A stretch of 38,773 bases of DNA. Source: a virus. The stretch's first letter is position 1. Every line of letters starts with the position of its first letter. The stretch covers positions 1 to 38,773 of IMG/VR virus record IMGVR_UViG_3300044634_004784, one strand, 5' to 3'. The notes beneath the pieces are model-generated. The model worked only from the letters and a program-made list of their open reading frames with translations, was not told the DNA's origin and searched no databases. Shown in pieces: positions 134 through 31,612 of this stretch. The position numbers were made by a program, and so were the translations under genes.

Positions 134-688
134 ATGGCAGGATTACCACATTATCAAAATTCACTCTCTGCAACCAACAGGTTTGAACCGGTTTATTTAA
201 ACCAGTTCGAGGTTACTATTATACCTCCTGCTGCTGTTTTGGGCGGTGAAATTCTTCTGCAGCACGTAACAAAAGTGAGTGGGCTTTCTTTGGATAAAAA
301 TCCTGGATTAGTAACTCAAAAATATAAGTTCGCAAAAAGAAACTATGCTGGAGCAAAACCGGATAACACCTACATGGATCTCAGCCTTAGCTTTACTGTT
401 AACTTAAATGATGACAACTCGATGTATGTTTTTAAGACTTTAAGACAGTGGAGTGATCTGATTTACAATCCACTCACTGGTGCAATGGGTCTTAAGAACG
501 ATTATGCTGGTACGTTGGTAGTTTCTATCTTCAATAAACAAGGTGATGTGTTTAGAAGGATTACATGCAGAGATTGTTACCCGACAAAACCAGTCAATCC
601 AATGAACCTTAATTATACATCTACCGATATTTATAAGATAGATGATATGACATGGGCGGTTGATTATTGGGAAGATCTATTCTTATAA
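134..688 (+). CDS. Tail tube protein (gp19-like), copy 1
   Basis: The 184-aa product is slightly longer than T4 gp19 (163 aa). It has the tube-protein layout: an N-terminal segment with NQFEVTI, a central strand-rich domain, the phrase LRQWSDLIYNPLTGAMGLK, and an ending WAVDYWEDLFL that matches the ALDYWE ending of T4 gp19. It should polymerise into the inner tail tube under the sheath. A close paralogue follows 17 bases downstream. Both begin MAGLPH and share the N-F-E-P-V-L-N-Q-F-E-V pattern, so this is a tandem duplication. The leader is A-rich with no Shine-Dalgarno sequence. Confidence 0.85.
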   Translation: MAGLPHYQNSLSATNRFEPVYLNQFEVTIIPPAAVLGGEILLQHVTKVSGLSLDKNPGLVTQKYKFAKRNYAGAKPDNTYMDLSLSFTVNLNDDNSMYVFKTLRQWSDLIYNPLTGAMGLKNDYAGTLVVSIFNKQGDVFRRITCRDCYPTKPVNPMNLNYTSTDIYKIDDMTWAVDYWEDLFL

Positions 689-705: not shown

Positions 706-1281
706 ATGGCAGGTTTACCACATTTTACCAACTCGAGAGCGGCGATAAACAACTTCGAACCAGTTTTTCTTAATCAATTTGAGGTTTTAATAAATACGCC
801 GGCAGGAATTGTCGATGCGACAACTACATTCAAGGGCGAAACCGTATTAACTCAGCAAGTTAAATCGATTACAGGTTTAGCTGTTGATATTTTGCCTGCT
901 TCTAATGTAGAGCAGAATTACAAGTTCGCAACAAGAAGATATGCAGGTGGAGAGCCTTCAACATCCGACATGACACTCACTGTGGAATTTGAAGTTAACT
1001 TGAATGATGCAAATTCAATGACAACGTACAAGATATTAAGACAGTGGAGTGATTTGATATACAACCCGTTAACCGGTGCAATGGGACTTAAGAGCGACTA
1101 TGTTGGCTCTATGGTTATATCGGTTTTCAATAAAAGAGGTGACGTTTTCAGAAGAATTAGAATTCCTTCTTGTTTCTTAAGTGAGGCTATAAACCCAATG
1201 GAATTAGATTACGAAAATCCGGCAATCTACACGGTCTCAACATCTTGGATATGTGATTACTGGGAAGATTTATTTTTATAA
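706..1281 (+). CDS. Tail tube protein (gp19-like), copy 2
   Basis: The 191-aa product is a paralogue of the preceding gene. Shared blocks include MAGLPH at the start, the RQWSDLIYNPLTGAMGLK segment, the FNKRGDVFRRI strand and the C-terminal CDYWEDLFL. It carries a few extra residues near position 35-45 (VDATTTFKGE), in a loop. The two proteins could both be tube subunits, or one could be a tube initiator or terminator at the baseplate or neck. The sequence does not say which. A strong hairpin terminator follows at 1303-1329, ending the sheath-tube transcription unit. Confidence 0.82.
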   Translation: MAGLPHFTNSRAAINNFEPVFLNQFEVLINTPAGIVDATTTFKGETVLTQQVKSITGLAVDILPASNVEQNYKFATRRYAGGEPSTSDMTLTVEFEVNLNDANSMTTYKILRQWSDLIYNPLTGAMGLKSDYVGSMVISVFNKRGDVFRRIRIPSCFLSEAINPMELDYENPAIYTVSTSWICDYWEDLFL

Positions 1282-8351: not shown

Positions 8352-9023
8352 GTGTCAGATAATAATCTTGATTTTGATGGTGGATCAGCTCTTTCTACAG
8401 GTGATGTTATATTCCCTGGTGGATCAGCTTCATTTCCGCTAAATCCAATGGAAGGAACAACAGGTCCACAGATCTTTGTTACCAAATACACAAACATAGC
8501 GCGTACAAGAGAGGATCTAGTAAGGGTTAATGCTACTTTCAGGGATTTTAATGTTCAACCTGAGATTAAATTCACAAAGGAGTCTTTTGATGTAGTCCAA
8601 CAAGCCGAAACCCTCGATTATCTAAACGTAGCTTCATTTTTTCACCCTCTGCAATCTTTTTCTGATTTCCAGAAACAAACTTTTATAATAGGACCTAGAA
8701 ATTCAATAAATCTCGATCCATCTGGATTTGAAGGTACACTAGGTGAAGCCTCAATGCTTATGGCTAGAGCTTTTTATTTACCGGAAACACCAATTGATGA
8801 AAAAATCCTTTTCTGGGATTATAAGGGATCTGGTAGAAACCTTATGGGACAATTCATGGTTTTAACTGGTGCAATAAAAGAGGATAGCAGCTGGAAAGGT
8901 TGGGATCTAGATCCGTTTTCAACCTACGGCCACACTGGATCTGCAGATTCTGCTAACGGTGGATTCATTTTTACAAATCCGACCGATCGCAATGTTAAAT
9001 TAACAATAATAACAGCTAATTAA
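8352..9023 (+). CDS. Putative virion surface protein, paralogue of the next gene (GTG start)
   Basis: The 223-aa product starts at a GTG four bases after the previous stop and begins MSDNNLDFDGG. It is strand-rich with no membrane segment. The C-terminal half (about 130-223) is shared with the next protein. Both have W-x-Y-x-G, then M-G-x-x-M-x-L-x-G, then G-W, then G-G-x-x-F-x-N and a closing strand (KLTIITAN here). The N-terminal part is unique. Small beta-rich proteins in tandem near structural genes often decorate capsids or fibres; that role is inferred from context only. Confidence 0.55.
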   Translation: MSDNNLDFDGGSALSTGDVIFPGGSASFPLNPMEGTTGPQIFVTKYTNIARTREDLVRVNATFRDFNVQPEIKFTKESFDVVQQAETLDYLNVASFFHPLQSFSDFQKQTFIIGPRNSINLDPSGFEGTLGEASMLMARAFYLPETPIDEKILFWDYKGSGRNLMGQFMVLTGAIKEDSSWKGWDLDPFSTYGHTGSADSANGGFIFTNPTDRNVKLTIITAN

Positions 9024-9024
9024 G

Positions 9025-9507
9025 ATGGCAACCCAACCAATTACTTGTCCGTATGATGAAGGCACCGGCTTTAAATTTCATAGAGGAAATCTTGTACTAG
9101 ATGATGGAGGAATGAAACTTCCAGTTTATCTCGAATTACATGACATGTTCCAAGAAACCTCGGCTTTCAGTAAAAATAAGGTTTTTTTAAAAGCTAATAA
9201 GTGTTTTTTATTAAGTCAAACAAACACCGGAGATGATGATGGATATGTTTCTTTTATTGCTGTGAAGGCAACATTTCCTTCGTCTATTGTTGAATCCAAA
9301 AAATATCTAGAGTGGACTTATCTCGGAAACACCTACTATATGGGTGAATTGATGATTCTTTCTGGAAAAAATCTATCTACAACAGATTCTATACAGGAAG
9401 GATGGCTTTTATCCAAGCCTGGTGTTTATTCAGAATTGGGTGGAATAGTTTTTTGTAATACACATTCGGATATAGATATAAAGCTTGAAATACTCGTTTG
9501 TAAATAA
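9025..9507 (+). CDS. Putative virion surface protein, shorter paralogue
   Basis: The 160-aa product starts one base after the preceding stop. Its C-terminal region (LEWTYLGNTYYMGELMILSG, then GGIVFCNTHSDIDIKLEI) parallels that of the upstream protein (LFWDYKGSGRNLMGQFMVLT, then GGFIFTNPTDRNVKLTI). It lacks the longer N-terminal region of its neighbour. The two look like a tandem duplication that has diverged. Function is unknown; a capsid or tail decoration protein is a reasonable guess. Confidence 0.55.
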   Translation: MATQPITCPYDEGTGFKFHRGNLVLDDGGMKLPVYLELHDMFQETSAFSKNKVFLKANKCFLLSQTNTGDDDGYVSFIAVKATFPSSIVESKKYLEWTYLGNTYYMGELMILSGKNLSTTDSIQEGWLLSKPGVYSELGGIVFCNTHSDIDIKLEILVCK

Positions 9508-12775: not shown

Positions 12776-13261
12776 ATGACAGATATCAAAAAGGTTAAGC
12801 CTAACGGCGAATATAAGTCGGGTTTATATGAACCCCAGAATGGAGAAAAGTATATAGGGGATATACACAACATCATCTATAGGTCTTCTTGGGAATATAG
12901 ATTCTGTTTGTATTGTGACACTAATGAATCGATTCTTAAATGGAGTTCTGAACCTCTAAGCATCAGGTATTACAATCCTCTTGACAAGAAAGAACATGAT
13001 TACAATGTTGACTTTTATATCAAAGTTCTTAAAGAGTCTGGCGAAGAGCAGGAATGGATCCTCGAGATTAAACCTGAGAATCAAACCAAAAAACCAATCC
13101 TTGAAGGAGTTACTACGGTTCAAAAGTTGAAATCATACAACAGAAATATGCAGATTTGGATAACAAATCAAGCTAAATTCAAGGCAGCAAAGGATTGGTC
13201 TGAAAAAAGAGGTTTTAAATTTGGTGTAATTGATGAAAATTTTCTTTTTAAAAGTAAATGA
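12776..13261 (+). CDS. Head completion protein gp4-like (TnsA/PD-(D/E)XK fold)
   Basis: The 161-aa product matches the T4 gp4 (gp50/65) head completion family in length and motifs. Visible are IIYRSSWEYRFCLYCDTNES, then KWSSEPLSIRYYNPLD, then YNVDFYIKV and EWILEIKPENQTKKP. The E-x-x, V-D-F and E-I-K residues form the TnsA-like PD-(D/E)XK pattern. In T4 the protein acts after packaging to prepare the head for tail joining. The stop overlaps the next start (ATGA), so the genes are coupled. Confidence 0.85.
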   Translation: MTDIKKVKPNGEYKSGLYEPQNGEKYIGDIHNIIYRSSWEYRFCLYCDTNESILKWSSEPLSIRYYNPLDKKEHDYNVDFYIKVLKESGEEQEWILEIKPENQTKKPILEGVTTVQKLKSYNRNMQIWITNQAKFKAAKDWSEKRGFKFGVIDENFLFKSK

Positions 13262-13872: not shown

Positions 13873-15486
13873 ATGGCAGGCTTTGTAAATAATAATGATC
13901 CACAGCAGTCTCCTGTAATCACGAGGATTAGAGAATCCGTGAGAAAACTGAGTACCTTTGGTATGAAGTATGATGACATGGTGATTAGAAATTCACAGGC
14001 AGTTGGTGTCACTGAAGCAGCTTTTCTGAATAAGAATAAATCAAACGTCGAGGATGAAAGCATGCTTTGGACCCTTGCCAAGCAAGATATCACATCTAAA
14101 CAATTTATTTCTTATTTTGATAAGGATTATAAGGGAAAAAGAGATTATCTTAGAAAGTTCTCGTTGAATCCAGAAATTGAATGGGTTTTGGATACGATTT
14201 GCGACGAGAGCATTTCATACGATCCAGCAAACTTTTTTGCTTACCCTGATTTTCTCGATCTTACCGATGTAAATGAAAAAATTAAGGATTCCCTTTATGA
14301 ATCGTATAGAAAACTATATGATATTTGGGGTTTCTCTGATGATATTACAGCTTGGCAATATTTCAGACAATTCCTTATTGATGGGTTTCTTTGTTTTGAG
14401 ATCATTTATGATAACGAGGGCAAGAATATTATAGGATTCAAAGAATTGGATCCAGTTACCATCGTACCCAGTGTCGAAAAACAGATTGATGGGAGTTTCG
14501 TTAATACCTGGACTCAATTTCCACAAGATCCTAAAAAAAGAAGAATCTTATACGATCCCCAAGTTATTTATATCTCTTATGCAAAGGGAAATTCAATTTC
14601 AAGAATTAGTTACATTGAAAGACTAATAAGACCGTATAATATTCTGAGAATTATTGAATACACCAGAATAATTTGGTCTGTTATGAACGCATCATTCAAG
14701 CTAAAGATGACTGTTCCAATTGGAACTAAATCACAGCAAAAGGGTATGCAAACTCTTGGTGAACTTATGAGTATCTATAAAGAAGATGTTCAGTTAAATG
14801 ATGATAGTGGTGAATTATTCATTGATGGAAGACCAAAGATTCAATTCTATAAAAACTATCTTATGCCGTCTGGTGTAAATGGTACACCAACAATAGAACC
14901 TCTCACAACAGAAGGACCTAATTTGAATGATCCAGCTCCTCTAGCTTACTTCTTTGATAAATTTGTACAAGAATCTAAAGTTCCACCTTCTAGATTTACT
15001 GGACCTGATGGAACTAATGCTTCTACGTATACTAATGCTGCTGAAGGATTAGACAAAGAAGAAATCAGATTCGCTAAATTTATAGAGAGACTTAGATCTA
15101 TATTCCAAGAGATTCTAACAAAACCTTTATGGATCCAGATGGTTAAGAAAAACCCTGGACTCGATGATGATTTTATGTTTAAGAGCCAATTGGGATTGAA
15201 TTATTTCTCTGATAATCCATTCAAAATTAATCAAGAAATAGAGGTTATCACTAAGAGAAAAGAATCTGTAGTAGCTATGTCAGGACTTTTAGATGATGAA
15301 GATAAACCCTATTTTTCAGTTCCTTACTTAATTGAAACATTTTTAGGATTTTCTAGACAGGATATTGTGGCTAACGCAGAAGCCAAAGAAAGACTGGAGA
15401 AAAAGAAAAAAGAAAGTGAAAGTAAAGAAGACAAAAAGGGTAAAGGTGGTAAAGAAGGTGAAGATAATGAAAGTATAACTTTATAA
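13873..15486 (+). CDS. Portal vertex protein (gp20-like), copy 1
   Basis: The 537-aa product is close in length to T4 gp20 (524 aa). Family hallmarks include IDGFLCFEIIYDNEGKNIIG followed by FKELDP, QVIYISYAKGNSISRISYIE, RIIWSVMNASFKL, a Gln-rich crown helix segment, DDSGELFIDGRPKIQFYKNY and RLRSIFQEILTKPLWIQMVK. The portal is a dodecameric ring through which DNA is packaged and to which the neck attaches. The C-terminal tail is Lys/Glu/Gly-rich and ends NESITL. Two bases after its stop a second portal paralogue begins. Confidence 0.9.
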   Translation: MAGFVNNNDPQQSPVITRIRESVRKLSTFGMKYDDMVIRNSQAVGVTEAAFLNKNKSNVEDESMLWTLAKQDITSKQFISYFDKDYKGKRDYLRKFSLNPEIEWVLDTICDESISYDPANFFAYPDFLDLTDVNEKIKDSLYESYRKLYDIWGFSDDITAWQYFRQFLIDGFLCFEIIYDNEGKNIIGFKELDPVTIVPSVEKQIDGSFVNTWTQFPQDPKKRRILYDPQVIYISYAKGNSISRISYIERLIRPYNILRIIEYTRIIWSVMNASFKLKMTVPIGTKSQQKGMQTLGELMSIYKEDVQLNDDSGELFIDGRPKIQFYKNYLMPSGVNGTPTIEPLTTEGPNLNDPAPLAYFFDKFVQESKVPPSRFTGPDGTNASTYTNAAEGLDKEEIRFAKFIERLRSIFQEILTKPLWIQMVKKNPGLDDDFMFKSQLGLNYFSDNPFKINQEIEVITKRKESVVAMSGLLDDEDKPYFSVPYLIETFLGFSRQDIVANAEAKERLEKKKKESESKEDKKGKGGKEGEDNESITL

Positions 15487-15487
15487 A

Positions 15488-17122
15488 ATGGCAGGATTTT
15501 TAGATTTTTTGAAACCGAATGAATCGGCTTTAGGTAATATTCTTAGAAATCTAAGTAATGTTTCTAAATTCGGAATGCAATATGATGATATGGTTGTACG
15601 GAATTCGCAAGCCATAGGTAAAAGTGAGGGTTCTTTCTTTAATCAACAAGGAACAGGATTCACTCAAGATGATGCTTTTTATTGGACCCTATCATATCAA
15701 GATACAAAAGTCAAAAAATACATTGCTTATTTCGATAAGGATTACATAGAAAAGAGAAATTTTCTTAGAAAGTTTTCACTCAACGGCGAAATAGAATTCA
15801 TTCTTGATACCATAACGGACGAATGTGTAAGCTATGATGACAGAAACTTCTTCGCAAATCCATCATTTGTTAATTTGGATTTGAAAGAAAAAGTCTTGGA
15901 TAAAATCCAATCCCACTATAATAGACTTTATAATGTCTTCGGATTCCAAAATTCAATATTGGCTTGGCAGTTATTTAAACAATTTTTAATTGATGGGTTC
16001 TTAGCTTTTGAGATAATTTACGATAATAAAGGTAAAGAGGTTATAGGATTTAAAGAATTAGATCCAACATCTCTACAGCCTGCTGTTGAAAAGGTTGGTG
16101 AAAATGAACATCAACAATTTTGGATTCAATATCCTAAGAATCCACAAATGACGAGAAAATTAACTAACGAGCAGATCATTTATATTTCGTATGCTAAAGG
16201 AAATAGCATTTCAAGGGTTAGTTATGTCGAGCGATTAGTTAGATCCTATAACATATTAAGAATCATGGAAAATTCCAGAGTTATTTGGAATGTGATGAAT
16301 GCTTCTTATAGACTTAAGTTTGTAATCCCTACTGGAACACAATCACAACAGAAATCTTTACAAACATTAGGTCAGCTAATGTCACACTATAAGGAGGAAA
16401 TAAACATTAATGATTCTTCTGGAGAATTAACTATAAATGGAAAACCAAAGGTTCAGTTTTATAAGAACTATTTATTTCCTGAGATGAATGGTCAATCTCC
16501 ACAAATTTCGTCTTTGAATCCGTCTGGTCCAGATTTTAATATAATGGACAATGTTGTTTATTTTTACAATAAATTAAAAATGGATTCTAAGCTTCCATAT
16601 GCTAGATTTGCAGCTAGAAGTGCAGGTCCTTCAAACTATAAGGTAAGCATAGATGCTTTAGAAAGAGATGAAATTCGTTTTGAAAAGTTTCTCAGAAGAC
16701 TCAGATCTATTTTTCAAGAAATACTCGTCAAACCCCTTTATATTCAAATGTGCCTGGAGTTCCCTGAATTATCTAGAGATAGAAGTTTTAAGGTCAATTT
16801 GGGTTTAAATTTTTACAGAGAAAGCGAATTTGAAGAAATGGTACAGCTTTCGAATTATAGCAAGAGAAGTGATTTCATTAAAGGTTTAGGTGATCTTAAG
16901 GTGAAGCTTGGTGAAGAAGAAAAGCCTTATTTCGACAATGATTTTCTAATACAGAGATTTTTAGGTCTAACCCCAGATCAGATTAGAATGAATTCAGAGT
17001 ATAAAAAGAAGGAAGAAAAGCAATCAGCAAAACCTTCGGAACCTGCACCAGCAGGAGAGGCCGCACCAGAAGCACCAGAAGCACCAGCACCAGAAGGGGA
17101 AGAACCTGAGGTTACTCTATAA
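15488..17122 (+). CDS. Portal vertex protein (gp20-like), copy 2
   Basis: The 544-aa product is a full-length paralogue of the preceding portal, similar from end to end. It shares FGMQYDDMVVRNSQAIG, YFDKDYIEKRNFLRKFSLNG, IDGFLAFEIIYDNKGKEVIG, ISYAKGNSISRVSYVERLVR and RLRSIFQEILVKPLYIQMC. Differences cluster in the stretch around residues 350-400, where copy 1 has GPDGTNASTYTNAAE and copy 2 has AARSAGPSNYKVSID, and in the tails. The C-terminal tail is Ala/Pro/Glu-rich with unusually high GC for this region and ends EPEVTL. No frameshift or premature stop is seen, so both copies look functional. Confidence 0.9.
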   Translation: MAGFLDFLKPNESALGNILRNLSNVSKFGMQYDDMVVRNSQAIGKSEGSFFNQQGTGFTQDDAFYWTLSYQDTKVKKYIAYFDKDYIEKRNFLRKFSLNGEIEFILDTITDECVSYDDRNFFANPSFVNLDLKEKVLDKIQSHYNRLYNVFGFQNSILAWQLFKQFLIDGFLAFEIIYDNKGKEVIGFKELDPTSLQPAVEKVGENEHQQFWIQYPKNPQMTRKLTNEQIIYISYAKGNSISRVSYVERLVRSYNILRIMENSRVIWNVMNASYRLKFVIPTGTQSQQKSLQTLGQLMSHYKEEININDSSGELTINGKPKVQFYKNYLFPEMNGQSPQISSLNPSGPDFNIMDNVVYFYNKLKMDSKLPYARFAARSAGPSNYKVSIDALERDEIRFEKFLRRLRSIFQEILVKPLYIQMCLEFPELSRDRSFKVNLGLNFYRESEFEEMVQLSNYSKRSDFIKGLGDLKVKLGEEEKPYFDNDFLIQRFLGLTPDQIRMNSEYKKKEEKQSAKPSEPAPAGEAAPEAPEAPAPEGEEPEVTL

Positions 17123-27906: not shown

Positions 27907-29871
27907 ATGCCATTGCCACAACTACAATCCATTAATGAAGATTATGTTTTTATTTTAGAAAAACAAAATTCTATTTTAGAAGCAAAGAGATCTGATTCTG
28001 ATGACTATGTCTTAGAAGGTATTGCTGCTGTTTTTGGACAAGAAAACAATAACAATAGAATCTACGAGGAAAAAGAGTATCTTCCACATTTAGAATATCT
28101 TAAAGAAAAAATCCTACAAAAAAGATTGGTTGGTGAGCTAGACCACCCTGAAAAGTTTGATGTGTCTTTAAAGAATATTTCACACATGATAACAGATCTT
28201 GATTTTGATAAAGGCTCAAGATTGCTAAAGATAAAAGTAAGATTGCTCGACACACCGGCAGGAAAAATAGCAAAGAGCCTAGTGGATGCTGGTGTTCCTC
28301 TTTCAATTTCTTCTAGAGCAGCTGGATCAGTTGGACCCGATAAAAAGGTTCAGATTAAAAAAATCTTTACTTATGATTTAGTAGCAGATCCAGGTTTTAA
28401 AGATGCACAGCTTGAAAGAGTGTATGAAAGTCAAGGCTTTACAACTACCCAGATCGAAGAAATGAAAAAAAATAGCATTTTAAACGGTCTTGAATGTCTA
28501 AATGAATCATTAGGTATAGAAAATGAATCGACGTTAAAGATATATAAAGTCGAAAACGATCAAGAATTTCAAAAAATCGTAAATAAATCAGACAATAAAA
28601 ATAAAACAGCCATTATGGAGAATAATGAATTTGTTACTGCAGAGGAACTAAATAAGTATTCAATTTTCCTTAAAAAGGAAATGGACTCTTTAAAATCAGC
28701 TATCTCGGAAGTAAAGGAACAAAAAGCATCTTTGACTGAATCAGAAGAAGCTAACAAATCAAACCAAATACTCGAAGAAAGAGTTGCTAAGTTAGAAAAA
28801 TACTCAGAGTATTTAGCAGAGAATCTAGAGAATGCTATTAAGTATGGTGAATACCTAGCAGAGAACTTAGACAATTCTATCAACTATAGTAAATATTTAG
28901 CTGAAAATTTAGATAAGAATATTTCATATTCTAAATATATAGCAGAAAATGTTGACAAGTCTATTACATATTCAGAATATGTTGCAGAAAGCGTTGATAA
29001 AAGTATCGAATATTCTAAATATTTAGCTGAAAAATTGGATCAAAATATACAGTATTCTGAATATTTAGCAGAAAATGTAGATCACTCAATTAACTATTCT
29101 GAATATCTAGCAGAAAATCTTGATAAAGGTATTGCTTACACAGAATACGTAGCTGAAAAGTTAAACGATGGTATCGAATATTCGGAGTATCTTGCTGAAA
29201 ATGTTAATAAAGGAATTCAGTATTCTGAGTATCTTGCTGAAAATATTAACAAAGGAGTTGATTTCACTGAAAATCTTTCAGAAAAACTTAACAAATCTAT
29301 TTCTTATAGTGAATATATAGCTGAATCAATTTCTAATAAATTGCCAGCTGATCCTAGTACAGTATTAAGAGAAAGTGTAAATACATCTGCAGTTGCAGGT
29401 CTAAATGAATCTGGCTTCGCTGGAAATTATGAAGATCTAACATCAAGGATTGATTCACTCATTGAATCGGTTAAAACCCAAAAAACCGAGTCTAATATCA
29501 CAGAGGCTATAAAAATAGTAGCACCAGCCGAAACACAAAAGGCACAAGAAGTTCTTAACGAGAATGAAAACATCAACAAAACGGGACTCAAATTTATCGA
29601 TGAGATGCCTGAAGATTATGCTCCAGTTTGGGAATCTTTAAATGAAGGACAAAAGCAATCTATTATTGCACAATCAAACTTCTATAGATTAGATACACCT
29701 TACCAGATCCAAAATTTCTGGCAAACACGTCAATTAGGTTCTAAACCTGTTGGAGTACAAAAACTTGACGAGAACGAAAACGTTGCTCAAACCACAAAAA
29801 ACCAAGCTTATGGTTCAGATTACATGAATTATATAGCTAGTACGTTAGAGCAAAAGTTTCAAAGACGATAA
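27907..29871 (+). CDS. Prohead protease fused to scaffold-like coiled-coil region (gp21-gp22-like)
   Basis: The 654-aa product is much longer than T4 gp21 (212 aa). Residues 1-190 are the protease: VLEGIAAVFGQENNNNRIYE, the catalytic His in GELDHP (H80), LDTPAGKIAKSLVDAGVPLS, the catalytic Ser in SISSRAAGS (S135/S136), and YDLVADPGF. From about residue 215 the chain is helical and acidic. Residues 299-480 are 13 tandem 14-residue repeats of the type YSEYLAENLDKSI. The end (about 560-654) is globular-looking, with WESLNEGQ and FQRR. The long helical part fits a scaffolding core protein (gp22 function). Sites of the L-x-E type within it could let the protease digest the scaffold during maturation. 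Confidence 0.85.
   Translation: MPLPQLQSINEDYVFILEKQNSILEAKRSDSDDYVLEGIAAVFGQENNNNRIYEEKEYLPHLEYLKEKILQKRLVGELDHPEKFDVSLKNISHMITDLDFDKGSRLLKIKVRLLDTPAGKIAKSLVDAGVPLSISSRAAGSVGPDKKVQIKKIFTYDLVADPGFKDAQLERVYESQGFTTTQIEEMKKNSILNGLECLNESLGIENESTLKIYKVENDQEFQKIVNKSDNKNKTAIMENNEFVTAEELNKYSIFLKKEMDSLKSAISEVKEQKASLTESEEANKSNQILEERVAKLEKYSEYLAENLENAIKYGEYLAENLDNSINYSKYLAENLDKNISYSKYIAENVDKSITYSEYVAESVDKSIEYSKYLAEKLDQNIQYSEYLAENVDHSINYSEYLAENLDKGIAYTEYVAEKLNDGIEYSEYLAENVNKGIQYSEYLAENINKGVDFTENLSEKLNKSISYSEYIAESISNKLPADPSTVLRESVNTSAVAGLNESGFAGNYEDLTSRIDSLIESVKTQKTESNITEAIKIVAPAETQKAQEVLNENENINKTGLKFIDEMPEDYAPVWESLNEGQKQSIIAQSNFYRLDTPYQIQNFWQTRQLGSKPVGVQKLDENENVAQTTKNQAYGSDYMNYIASTLEQKFQRR
28801..29346 (+). 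repeat. 13 tandem 42-bp repeats encoding a 14-residue coiled-coil unit
   Basis: Thirteen consecutive 42-base units encode 14-residue repeats with consensus Y-S-E-Y-L-A-E-N-L-D-K-S-I-x, without any insertion or deletion. DNA copies have drifted at third positions while the protein pattern holds, so selection acts on the protein. Fourteen residues equal two heptads, consistent with a continuous coiled coil. Units 12 (FTENLSEKLNKSIS) and 13 are the most diverged. Confidence 0.95.
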
Positions 29872-29896: not shown

Positions 29897-31612
29897 ATGA
29901 AATTGATTAACGAAAACGAAATCTATGAAACCTGGTCTCCGATTATCGAGAGCAAAGCTGGTATCACAGATGAAAGCAAAAAAGGATGGTTGACTAAATA
30001 TTGTCACTATCACTCATTAAACGAATCTGCCGGTGCATATAACTCTTTAGGAGTTGTTAACGGTATGGGTACTGTAGCGCCACCTGCATTCCCTGGAGCT
30101 GCTTACCCTGGTGGTTCTTATTCATCTGGTGCTAACGCTGGTTTTTATAACAACACTTGGCAAGGTTCAGGCGATAAATTCCCTTCACTTCTTCCATTAG
30201 CTATTCAAGTAGCTGCGAAGACTATAGGTTTTGATATCGTTCCTGTTATTCCTATGTCTGGCCCAACTGGTATCTTGTCTTACTTAGACTACGTATACGC
30301 AGGTGGTAAAATTGCAGCTTCTGCTGCAAGCTCAGCTGCTGATCAGTTAGCTTCTGCTCCTTCAATGATTAAATTCCCAGTTTATCAATCAGCATCTGGA
30401 ACAGGTGTTACTGGTGCTACTGCTGGAACTTTCACTGTTGGTGCTACTGCTTCTATAAGCAACACTCTTCTTTTAACCTTCGTAGGTTTATCAAGAATTG
30501 ATGGATTCCCTATCTTCGAAATCACGGGTATCGCTTCAGGTTCTAACGTTGCTGCTTACTTCAACGGTACTCCTGCACAAGTAGTTACTGGATCTGGTGG
30601 AACAGGATTCTACACCGCAAATAGTTCAGGTACTGCTCAATTAGTTAAAGCTCTTGAAGATCACATCCAAGGATTCTCTGGTGCTGGTTTCAATGACACT
30701 GATGCTTGGCAAGGTCCTTACGTAGATGGTACTAAGACTTACAACCCTATGTTAAGAGGAGTAGCTGAATCTACCTACTACAACTCAATGGGTCTTTCGA
30801 CTTTCACTAAGTTCGTAGAAGCTGAAACTTTCCAAGTTGCTGCTTCAGTTACAACTGAGCAAATCCAAGATTTAAACAAGCAATTCGGTATTGATGTTAT
30901 CTCAATGATCGAGAACGCATTAGTTAACGAGGTTTCTCAATCAATTAACAAGCACATTCTTGCTAGAGCATTTGCTTTAGGCTGGTCTAACCACGTACAA
31001 TTCAATAACGTAGAAAACCAAAACCTTAACTTAAACCTAATTATTGGTGGTGCTGCTGGTACAACTCTAGCTTACGTGAATAAAGAAGATTCTACAAGAT
31101 CTATGGCTATCCCTGCAGGTCCTGCATCAGGTGGATATGAGAACTTATCAACTTTACAAAGAAGATTATTCTCAAGAATCCTTGCAGCTGCTAACGTGGT
31201 AGCTAACAGAGGTAGAAGAGGTCCTGCTAACTTCATCGTTACTAACGCTGCAGTAGCAAGTGCACTTCAAGACATCTCTCAGTTCACTTTCGCTCCATTC
31301 TCTAATACTTTAACTCAAAACAATGGTACTTTATACCCTGTAGGTTCACTTGCTGGTATGACTGTATATGTTGATCAAAATATGAACTATAATGATACTA
31401 GAGTTTGTGTTGGTAGAAAAGGTGGTGATGATGAGCCTGGAATTAAATTCATGCCTTATATGATGGCTGAATCTATTCAGACTATCTCTGAAGGTACAAT
31501 GTCGCCTAAGATCGCAGTAAAATCTAGATATGCTTTAGTAGAAGCTGGTTTCTTGCCAGAAACTATGTACTTAACATTCTTTGTTAACGTACCAGCTGGT
31601 GGATTAGCTTAA
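29897..31612 (+). CDS. Major capsid protein (gp23-like)
   Basis: The 571-aa product matches T4 gp23 (521 aa) in layout. The N-terminus NENEIYETWSPIIESKAG parallels T4 LLNKWKPLLEGEG. A propeptide of about 40 residues ends LNESAGAYN, fitting gp21-type cleavage after Glu. Then come LPLAIQVAAKTIGFDIVPVI and PMSGPTGILSYLDYVYAG, as in gp23 (DICGVQPMNSPTGQVFALR). The C-terminal half has the HK97-fold phrases AVASALQDI, GMTVYVDQNM and PKIAVKSRYALVEAGF. A Gly/Ala/Thr/Ser-rich insertion at about 150-250 is larger than in T4. Codon use is richer in C-ending codons than in neighbours, as expected for a highly expressed gene. A strong terminator follows. Confidence 0.92.
   Translation: MKLINENEIYETWSPIIESKAGITDESKKGWLTKYCHYHSLNESAGAYNSLGVVNGMGTVAPPAFPGAAYPGGSYSSGANAGFYNNTWQGSGDKFPSLLPLAIQVAAKTIGFDIVPVIPMSGPTGILSYLDYVYAGGKIAASAASSAADQLASAPSMIKFPVYQSASGTGVTGATAGTFTVGATASISNTLLLTFVGLSRIDGFPIFEITGIASGSNVAAYFNGTPAQVVTGSGGTGFYTANSSGTAQLVKALEDHIQGFSGAGFNDTDAWQGPYVDGTKTYNPMLRGVAESTYYNSMGLSTFTKFVEAETFQVAASVTTEQIQDLNKQFGIDVISMIENALVNEVSQSINKHILARAFALGWSNHVQFNNVENQNLNLNLIIGGAAGTTLAYVNKEDSTRSMAIPAGPASGGYENLSTLQRRLFSRILAAANVVANRGRRGPANFIVTNAAVASALQDISQFTFAPFSNTLTQNNGTLYPVGSLAGMTVYVDQNMNYNDTRVCVGRKGGDDEPGIKFMPYMMAESIQTISEGTMSPKIAVKSRYALVEAGFLPETMYLTFFVNVPAGGLA

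What the first reader, a model, noticed from the sequence alone, without database searches (positions are those of the whole stretch)
13873..17122. Two full-length tandem portal proteins
T4-type heads use one portal gene product in a 12-mer. Here two complete, clearly paralogous portal genes sit two bases apart, both with intact motifs, distinct insert regions (near residues 350-400) and distinct low-complexity tails. Mixed rings, stage-specific portals, or two particle types are all possible.
Basis: partly seen in the sequence, partly recalled or inferred. Interest (0 to 1): 0.75.

Follow-up and report, generated by a model that had tools for sequence, protein, structure and literature searches.

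The report
Conserved pair of phage portal genes
A group of very large freshwater phages carries two different, strictly conserved genes for the DNA-gate ring of the virus head, where every other T4-type phage searched carries one, which suggests that the ring is built from two kinds of subunit; that last step has not been shown directly.

Summary
ORFs 13873-15486 (A, 537 aa) and 15488-17122 (B, 544 aa) are both complete Portal_T4 (gp20) proteins, 50% identical, 1 nt apart. It is not an artefact: the pair recurs, always A then B and 1-23 nt apart, in 74 distinct nucleotide versions, and ten contigs of 218-434 kb each hold exactly two portals. A and B form separate, fully supported clades from one duplication on this clade's stem; 79 loci of the sister group all carry one portal. 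Both copies are under strong purifying selection (median dN/dS 0.020 and 0.014) and diverged symmetrically. Among 1,818 GenBank phage records with a match, none shows a second full portal. The terminase/neck-facing clip stayed alike in A and B, while the channel wall and tunnel loop diverged, including one charge reversal (A Asp/Glu379, B Arg/Lys377) in 35/35 pairs. The same genomes also carry a tandem tail-tube pair, single in the single-portal relatives where found. Best explanation: both proteins build one mixed portal ring, probably alternating A6B6. Membership of both in one ring, and the 6+6 stoichiometry, are inferred; separate homo-rings or a second role for one copy are not excluded.

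The parts
13873..15486 (+). Portal A (T4 gp20-type portal protein, 537 aa)
   Evidence: PF07230 E 4.7e-56, phrog_213; A clade 100*; dN/dS 0.020; Foldseek best hits T4 gp20
15488..17122 (+). Portal B (T4 gp20-type portal protein, 544 aa)
   Evidence: PF07230 E 1.5e-61, phrog_213; B clade 100*; dN/dS 0.014; Foldseek best hits T4 gp20
14902..14976 (+). A: channel loop and second stem helix (residues 344-368), gp20 350-373 by alignment
   Evidence: Enriched for sites fixed differently in A and B (6 of 25 columns against 23 of 514 overall; circular-shift p 0.015; region chosen after seeing the data)
16514..16588 (+). B: channel loop and second stem helix (residues 343-367)
   Evidence: Same as for A
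14977..15057 (+). A: tunnel loop (residues 369-395); Asp/Glu at 379 in 35/35 dereplicated A
   Evidence: Alignment to gp20 374-398; column letters
16589..16666 (+). B: tunnel loop (residues 368-393); Arg/Lys at 377 in 35/35 dereplicated B
   Evidence: Alignment to gp20 374-398; column letters
134..688 (+). Tail-tube paralogue T1 (184 aa), likely part of the same evolutionary pattern
   Evidence: phrog_32623 with weaker tail-tube families phrog_3629 and phrog_45; 55% identical to T2; two copies in all nine tandem-portal genomes tested, one in LR756500, the 634-735 kb phages and Lak-A1
706..1281 (+). Tail-tube paralogue T2 (191 aa)
   Evidence: As T1; tree
12776..13261 (+). Context: head-closure/head-completion type protein (phrog_218, TnsA-like endonuclease N-terminal domain)
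27907..29871 (+). Context: head maturation protease (N-terminal domain), single copy
   Evidence: phrog_207
29897..31612 (+). Context: major head protein, single copy
   Evidence: phrog_28442 and phrog_138

Best explanation
A and B are both structural subunits of the portal and together form the one portal ring of the particle, most likely a 12-mer in which A and B alternate (A6B6, six-fold symmetric). Both present nearly the same outer clip to the packaging motor and the neck, but different channel walls and tunnel loops, so the DNA channel is lined by two kinds of loop. A single ancestral portal gene was duplicated in tandem; the copies changed at complementary positions and became mutually dependent, which would explain why neither is ever lost. 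Shown here: two full genes, one old duplication, strong and equal constraint, unbroken linkage in one direction, and where the two differ. Inferred: that both are in the virion, that they share one ring, that the ratio is 6:6, and that they alternate.
For: Always both, always A then B, 1-23 nt apart; exactly two in ten contigs of 218-434 kb. A and B are sister clades with similar stems 0.42 and 0.44 and equal within-clade distances 0.264 and 0.269, so neither looks like an accessory copy. Median dN/dS 0.020 and 0.014. Clip closer between A and B (0.40) than to single portals (0.54-0.59), channel loop plus stem2 and tunnel loop as far or farther apart (0.65, 0.70). Differently fixed sites enriched in gp20 350-398 (circular-shift p 0.013-0.038 across thresholds). 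Tunnel-loop charge reversal fixed in 35/35 pairs; T4 tunnel loops contact those of their neighbours and their deletion disturbs 12-mer formation (PMC4493910). Tail-tube duplication on the same stem.
Against: No protein or structural data. Every sequence pattern named would also fit two homomeric rings that dock to the same motor. The region of enrichment was chosen after seeing the data. Net-charge contrast (A -4.9, B +7.0) fails in a basal subclade where A and B are about equal. The structure tool folds single chains only, so no ring was modelled, and the monomer models are of low confidence (pLDDT 60 and 63). Portal and tube duplications are one event each, so their coincidence carries little statistical weight.
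Confidence: 0.5

Rival explanations
1. A and B form separate homomeric portal rings used in different particle types, or at different stages (for example one for head initiation and packaging, the other for a second particle).
For: Both keep all portal domains and a similar clip, so each could dock the motor alone. Two tube proteins could in principle match two particle types.
Against: Only one terminase, sheath, protease and major capsid protein in G004. Genes 1-23 nt apart leave little room for separate expression control. Equal rates and symmetric stems are less expected if one ring is secondary.
Confidence: 0.2
2. One copy is the portal ring and the other took a new place on the same axis, such as an internal core, a second ring or a neck part.
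For: Channel-wall and tunnel-loop divergence; in the tubes one copy did diverge faster (T1 stem 0.19, T2 0.60).
Against: For the portals divergence is symmetric and both retain clip, stem, wing and crown, and both match T4 gp20 best; a recruited copy would be expected to lose motor-binding or ring features.
Confidence: 0.15
3. A and B mix in the ring without fixed order (A and B interchangeable, duplication kept for dosage or by neutral ratchet only).
For: Overall fold and clip are shared; 50% identity allows mixed contacts.
Against: No loss of either copy in intact loci, dN/dS about 0.02 in both and consistent fixed A/B differences in the channel argue against interchangeability. A neutral origin of the mixed ring is not excluded.
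Confidence: 0.12
4. Assembly artefact or decaying second copy.
For: One locus, L133, has a broken A frame.
Against: 50% identity, recurrence in 74 distinct nucleotide pairs from many assemblies, dN/dS near 0.02 in both.
Confidence: 0.01

Closest known systems
Phage T4 gp20 portal (PF07230, phrog_213; PDB 3JA7, 6UZC, 9MKB)
   Same: Same family by HMM, by sequence to solved chains and by fold search; same domain order by alignment
   Different: T4 has one gene and a homo-dodecamer (PMC4493910); here two diverged genes are fixed in tandem
Single portals of huge phages: LR756500 (462 kb), LR756502/504/501 and LR745206 (634-735 kb), Prevotella Lak phages
   Same: Closest relatives in GenBank: 45% identity for LR756500, 34-38% for the rest
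   Different: One portal gene each (LR756501 has an extra 60-aa fragment); one tail-tube gene each
Single-portal sister group in IMG/VR (L215-L292)
   Same: Sister to the A+B clade
   Different: All 79 loci have one portal; six of nine contigs tested show one tube, three show none by this search
Rings that became heteromeric by duplication, such as the fungal V-ATPase membrane ring (from my own knowledge)
   Same: Proposed logic: tandem or paralogous duplication, complementary change, mutual dependence. A likeness of mechanism only
   Different: Unrelated proteins; there the mixed ring is proven, here it is inferred

Membership tests
T4-type portal proteins (gp20, PF07230) | Profile match above the curated cut-off over most of the model | tested here: met
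   A 190.8 bits (model 7-429 of 433), B 208.9 bits (6-433), cut-off 22.9
T4-type portal proteins (gp20, PF07230) | Portal fold with wing, stem, clip, tunnel loop and crown | tested here: met
   Foldseek best hits are T4 gp20 chains for both (E 2.7e-17 for B, 1.0e-13 for A) and all domains align; models are of low confidence
T4-type portal proteins (gp20, PF07230) | Lies in the head gene cluster with protease and major capsid protein | tested here: met
   Protease 27907-29871, major head protein 29897-31612, head-closure protein 12776-13261
T4-type portal proteins (gp20, PF07230) | One portal gene per genome (usual in the family, not strictly defining) | tested here: not met
   Two full copies in all ten long contigs of the clade, against one in each of 1,818 GenBank records apart from the LR756501/503 fragment
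T4-type portal proteins (gp20, PF07230) | Assembles as a dodecameric ring | not testable with these tools
   Only single chains can be folded here
Heteromeric rings formed after gene duplication | Both paralogues conserved and constrained | tested here: met
Heteromeric rings formed after gene duplication | Both paralogues present in the same ring | not testable with these tools
   Only indirect support

The most novel reading that the evidence does not exclude
A tailed-phage lineage with a two-protein, symmetry-lowered axis: an alternating A6B6 portal (12-fold lowered to 6-fold) and a two-protein tail tube (mixed or alternating rings), both fixed by tandem duplications on the same branch.
Probability: 0.35. 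Interest if true: 0.82.

Novelty: new variant of a known kind. Interest (0 to 1): 0.62.

Why it matters
The portal of tailed phages is known as a ring of twelve identical subunits. A natural two-gene portal, kept throughout a clade of huge phages, would allow one to ask which subunits do what in packaging, gating and neck docking, and is a natural case of a homomeric ring turning heteromeric inside a virus particle. The matching tail-tube duplication makes it a question about the whole axis. The residues expected to differ (second stem helix, tunnel loop) are named and testable.

Tried and rejected
Assembly artefact and pseudogene: rejected. Block duplication of neighbours: rejected; only the tubes and the portals are paralogue pairs by BLASTP in the window, and the order T1-T2 ... 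A-B points to two separate tandem events. Gene conversion of whole genes: rejected, since A and B are clean clades; only tail ends look shared within a genome. Net-charge complementarity as a general rule: not upheld, absent in a basal subclade. Direct coupling analysis between A and B: not run, too few distinct sequences (67 A, 61 B). My recollection that the AlgoCIS tube alternates two proteins was wrong; the paper describes one tube protein, Alg1 (PMC8894135). Relatives in GTDB species genomes: none found. Reports of tandem or two-gene portals: none found, in a library that lacks most subscription papers.

Full report
CHECK. The window is a 38,773-base IMG/VR virus record. The two ORFs lie at the stated coordinates, 13873-15486 (A) and 15488-17122 (B), one base apart. 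Both match the T4 portal family over most of their length (PF07230, phrog_213) and are 50% identical over 515 aligned residues. T4 gp20 is the best solved relative by sequence and by fold; the monomer models have mean pLDDT of only 60 and 63.

REALITY AND SPREAD. IMG/VR scans found 278 relatives of A and 96 of B, of which the best 80 each were kept. Wherever a locus extends far enough both genes are present, always A before B. In 116 loci (window included, several overlapping on the same contig) both are intact, 1-23 nt apart, representing 74 distinct nucleotide pairs and 68 distinct protein pairs. One further locus, L133, has a broken A frame. Ten contigs of 218-434 kb each have exactly two Portal_T4 hits; LR756500, LR756502, LR756504, LR745206 and Lak-A1 have one, and LR756501 has one plus a 60-aa C-terminal fragment. 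In the GenBank phage collection 1,818 records match A at 1,820 places, the two extra places being in the identical-length records LR756501 and LR756503; records very near the window may be left out of that collection.

HISTORY. With 35 dereplicated pairs, all A form one clade and all B another (both 100*), sister to each other, with single-copy portals outside. A deeper scan gave 79 new loci of the LR756500 group; all hold one portal, 53 of them with at least 1.7 kb on both sides. In that tree the A and B stems are 0.42 and 0.44. The simplest reading is one duplication on the stem of this clade, symmetric divergence, and no loss in any intact locus seen.

CONSTRAINT. Over 106 locus pairs with measurable dS, median dN/dS is 0.020 for A and 0.014 for B. 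Amino-acid distances within A and within B are equal (means 0.264 and 0.269) and correlated (r 0.95), though linkage alone would give a correlation.

WHERE A AND B DIFFER. Domain limits come from the T4 gp20 paper (PMC4493910) through an alignment. In the clip, which faces terminase and neck in T4, A and B are closer to each other (0.40) than to single portals (0.59, 0.54). In the channel loop plus second stem helix (0.65) and the tunnel loop (0.70) they are farther from each other than from single portals (0.55-0.68). Sites fixed for different residues in A and B are enriched in gp20 350-398 (9 of 23 such sites in 51 of 531 columns; circular-shift p 0.013, and 0.015-0.038 at other thresholds). 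This region was chosen after seeing the data. One tunnel-loop column is acidic in all 35 A and basic in all 35 B. In T4, tunnel loops are thought to contact those of neighbouring subunits, and their deletion raised the share of 11-mers, so an A-B contact in an alternating ring is plausible; that step is inference. Core net charge is -4.9 for A, +7.0 for B and -6.4 for single portals, but in a basal subclade A and B are about equal, so this is not a general property.

TAILS AND TRANSLATION. Their last residues are TL- or TI-type in most A and B, and in the window only these two of 38 proteins end so. In some genomes the A and B tail ends are nearly identical even in DNA (L046, 28 of the last 30 bases), and sharing within a genome exceeds that of shuffled pairs (none of 5,000 shuffles; shared ancestry contributes). 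Local gene conversion, or a common partner of the tails inside the head, could explain this. Both start codons sit in similar A+T-rich contexts without an obvious Shine-Dalgarno sequence (inspection).

A SECOND PAIR. Window 134-688 and 706-1281 are tandem tail-tube proteins, 55% identical. All nine tandem-portal genomes tested have two; LR756500, the 634-735 kb phages and Lak-A1 have one. Of nine contigs of the single-portal group, six have one and three show none by this search. One of those three, G019, is the 429 kb IMG/VR contig whose portal is identical to that of LR756500, so a missing part of the contig is likely. The tube tree puts the duplication between the same groups, but T2 diverged faster than T1 (stems 0.60 and 0.19). 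In G004 the sheath, terminase, protease and major capsid protein showed no full-length paralogue. Two duplications of axial ring proteins on one branch are suggestive, but each is a single event.

MECHANISM. Most likely both proteins sit in one portal ring. Equal constraint, symmetric divergence, a shared clip face and differing channel faces fit a mixed ring, and regular alternation (A6B6) is the simplest arrangement that keeps twelve subunits and suits a six-fold neck and tail. I give this 0.5. Separate rings, a new role for one copy, and unordered mixing remain open; none can be decided from sequence.

NOVELTY. Both proteins are members of the T4 portal family. What is new is a fixed two-gene portal; no report of one was found in the held library, which is incomplete. 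I therefore rate it a new variant of a known kind.

Noticed in passing
window 134-688 and 706-1281: Tandem tail-tube paralogues, 55% identical; two copies in all tandem-portal genomes tested and one in the single-portal relatives where found.
   Followed up: yes
C-termini of window A (before 15486) and B (before 17122): Shared TL-type C-terminal ending; in several relatives A and B tail ends are nearly identical within a genome, as if kept alike by local gene conversion or a shared partner.
   Followed up: partly
window 8352-9023 and 9025-9507; in G004 277570-278259 and 278261-278746: Adjacent genes that are weak paralogues in G004 (27.5% identity), with no family match; function unknown, possibly structural.
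   Followed up: no
LR756501 (735 kb; locus L149 lies in it), 15166-15351, minus strand: A 60-aa fragment matching the portal C-terminal domain, far from the full portal gene.
   Followed up: no
LR756500 (pieces L189-L212), for example 182153-193238 and 223125-262488: A family of about nine proteins of 480-650 aa, 42-69% identical, scattered between structural genes; perhaps a mobile or homing element, not identified here.
   Followed up: no
L070 against L071, L072, L073, L075, L118: Synonymous distance is 0.10 in A but 0.72 in B, which suggests recombination between the two genes of the pair among close relatives.
   Followed up: no
G004 117060-119498 with 119522-122746; 201730-202878 with 202880-203992: Two further tandem paralogue pairs (64% and 39% identical) without any PHROG match.
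   Followed up: no
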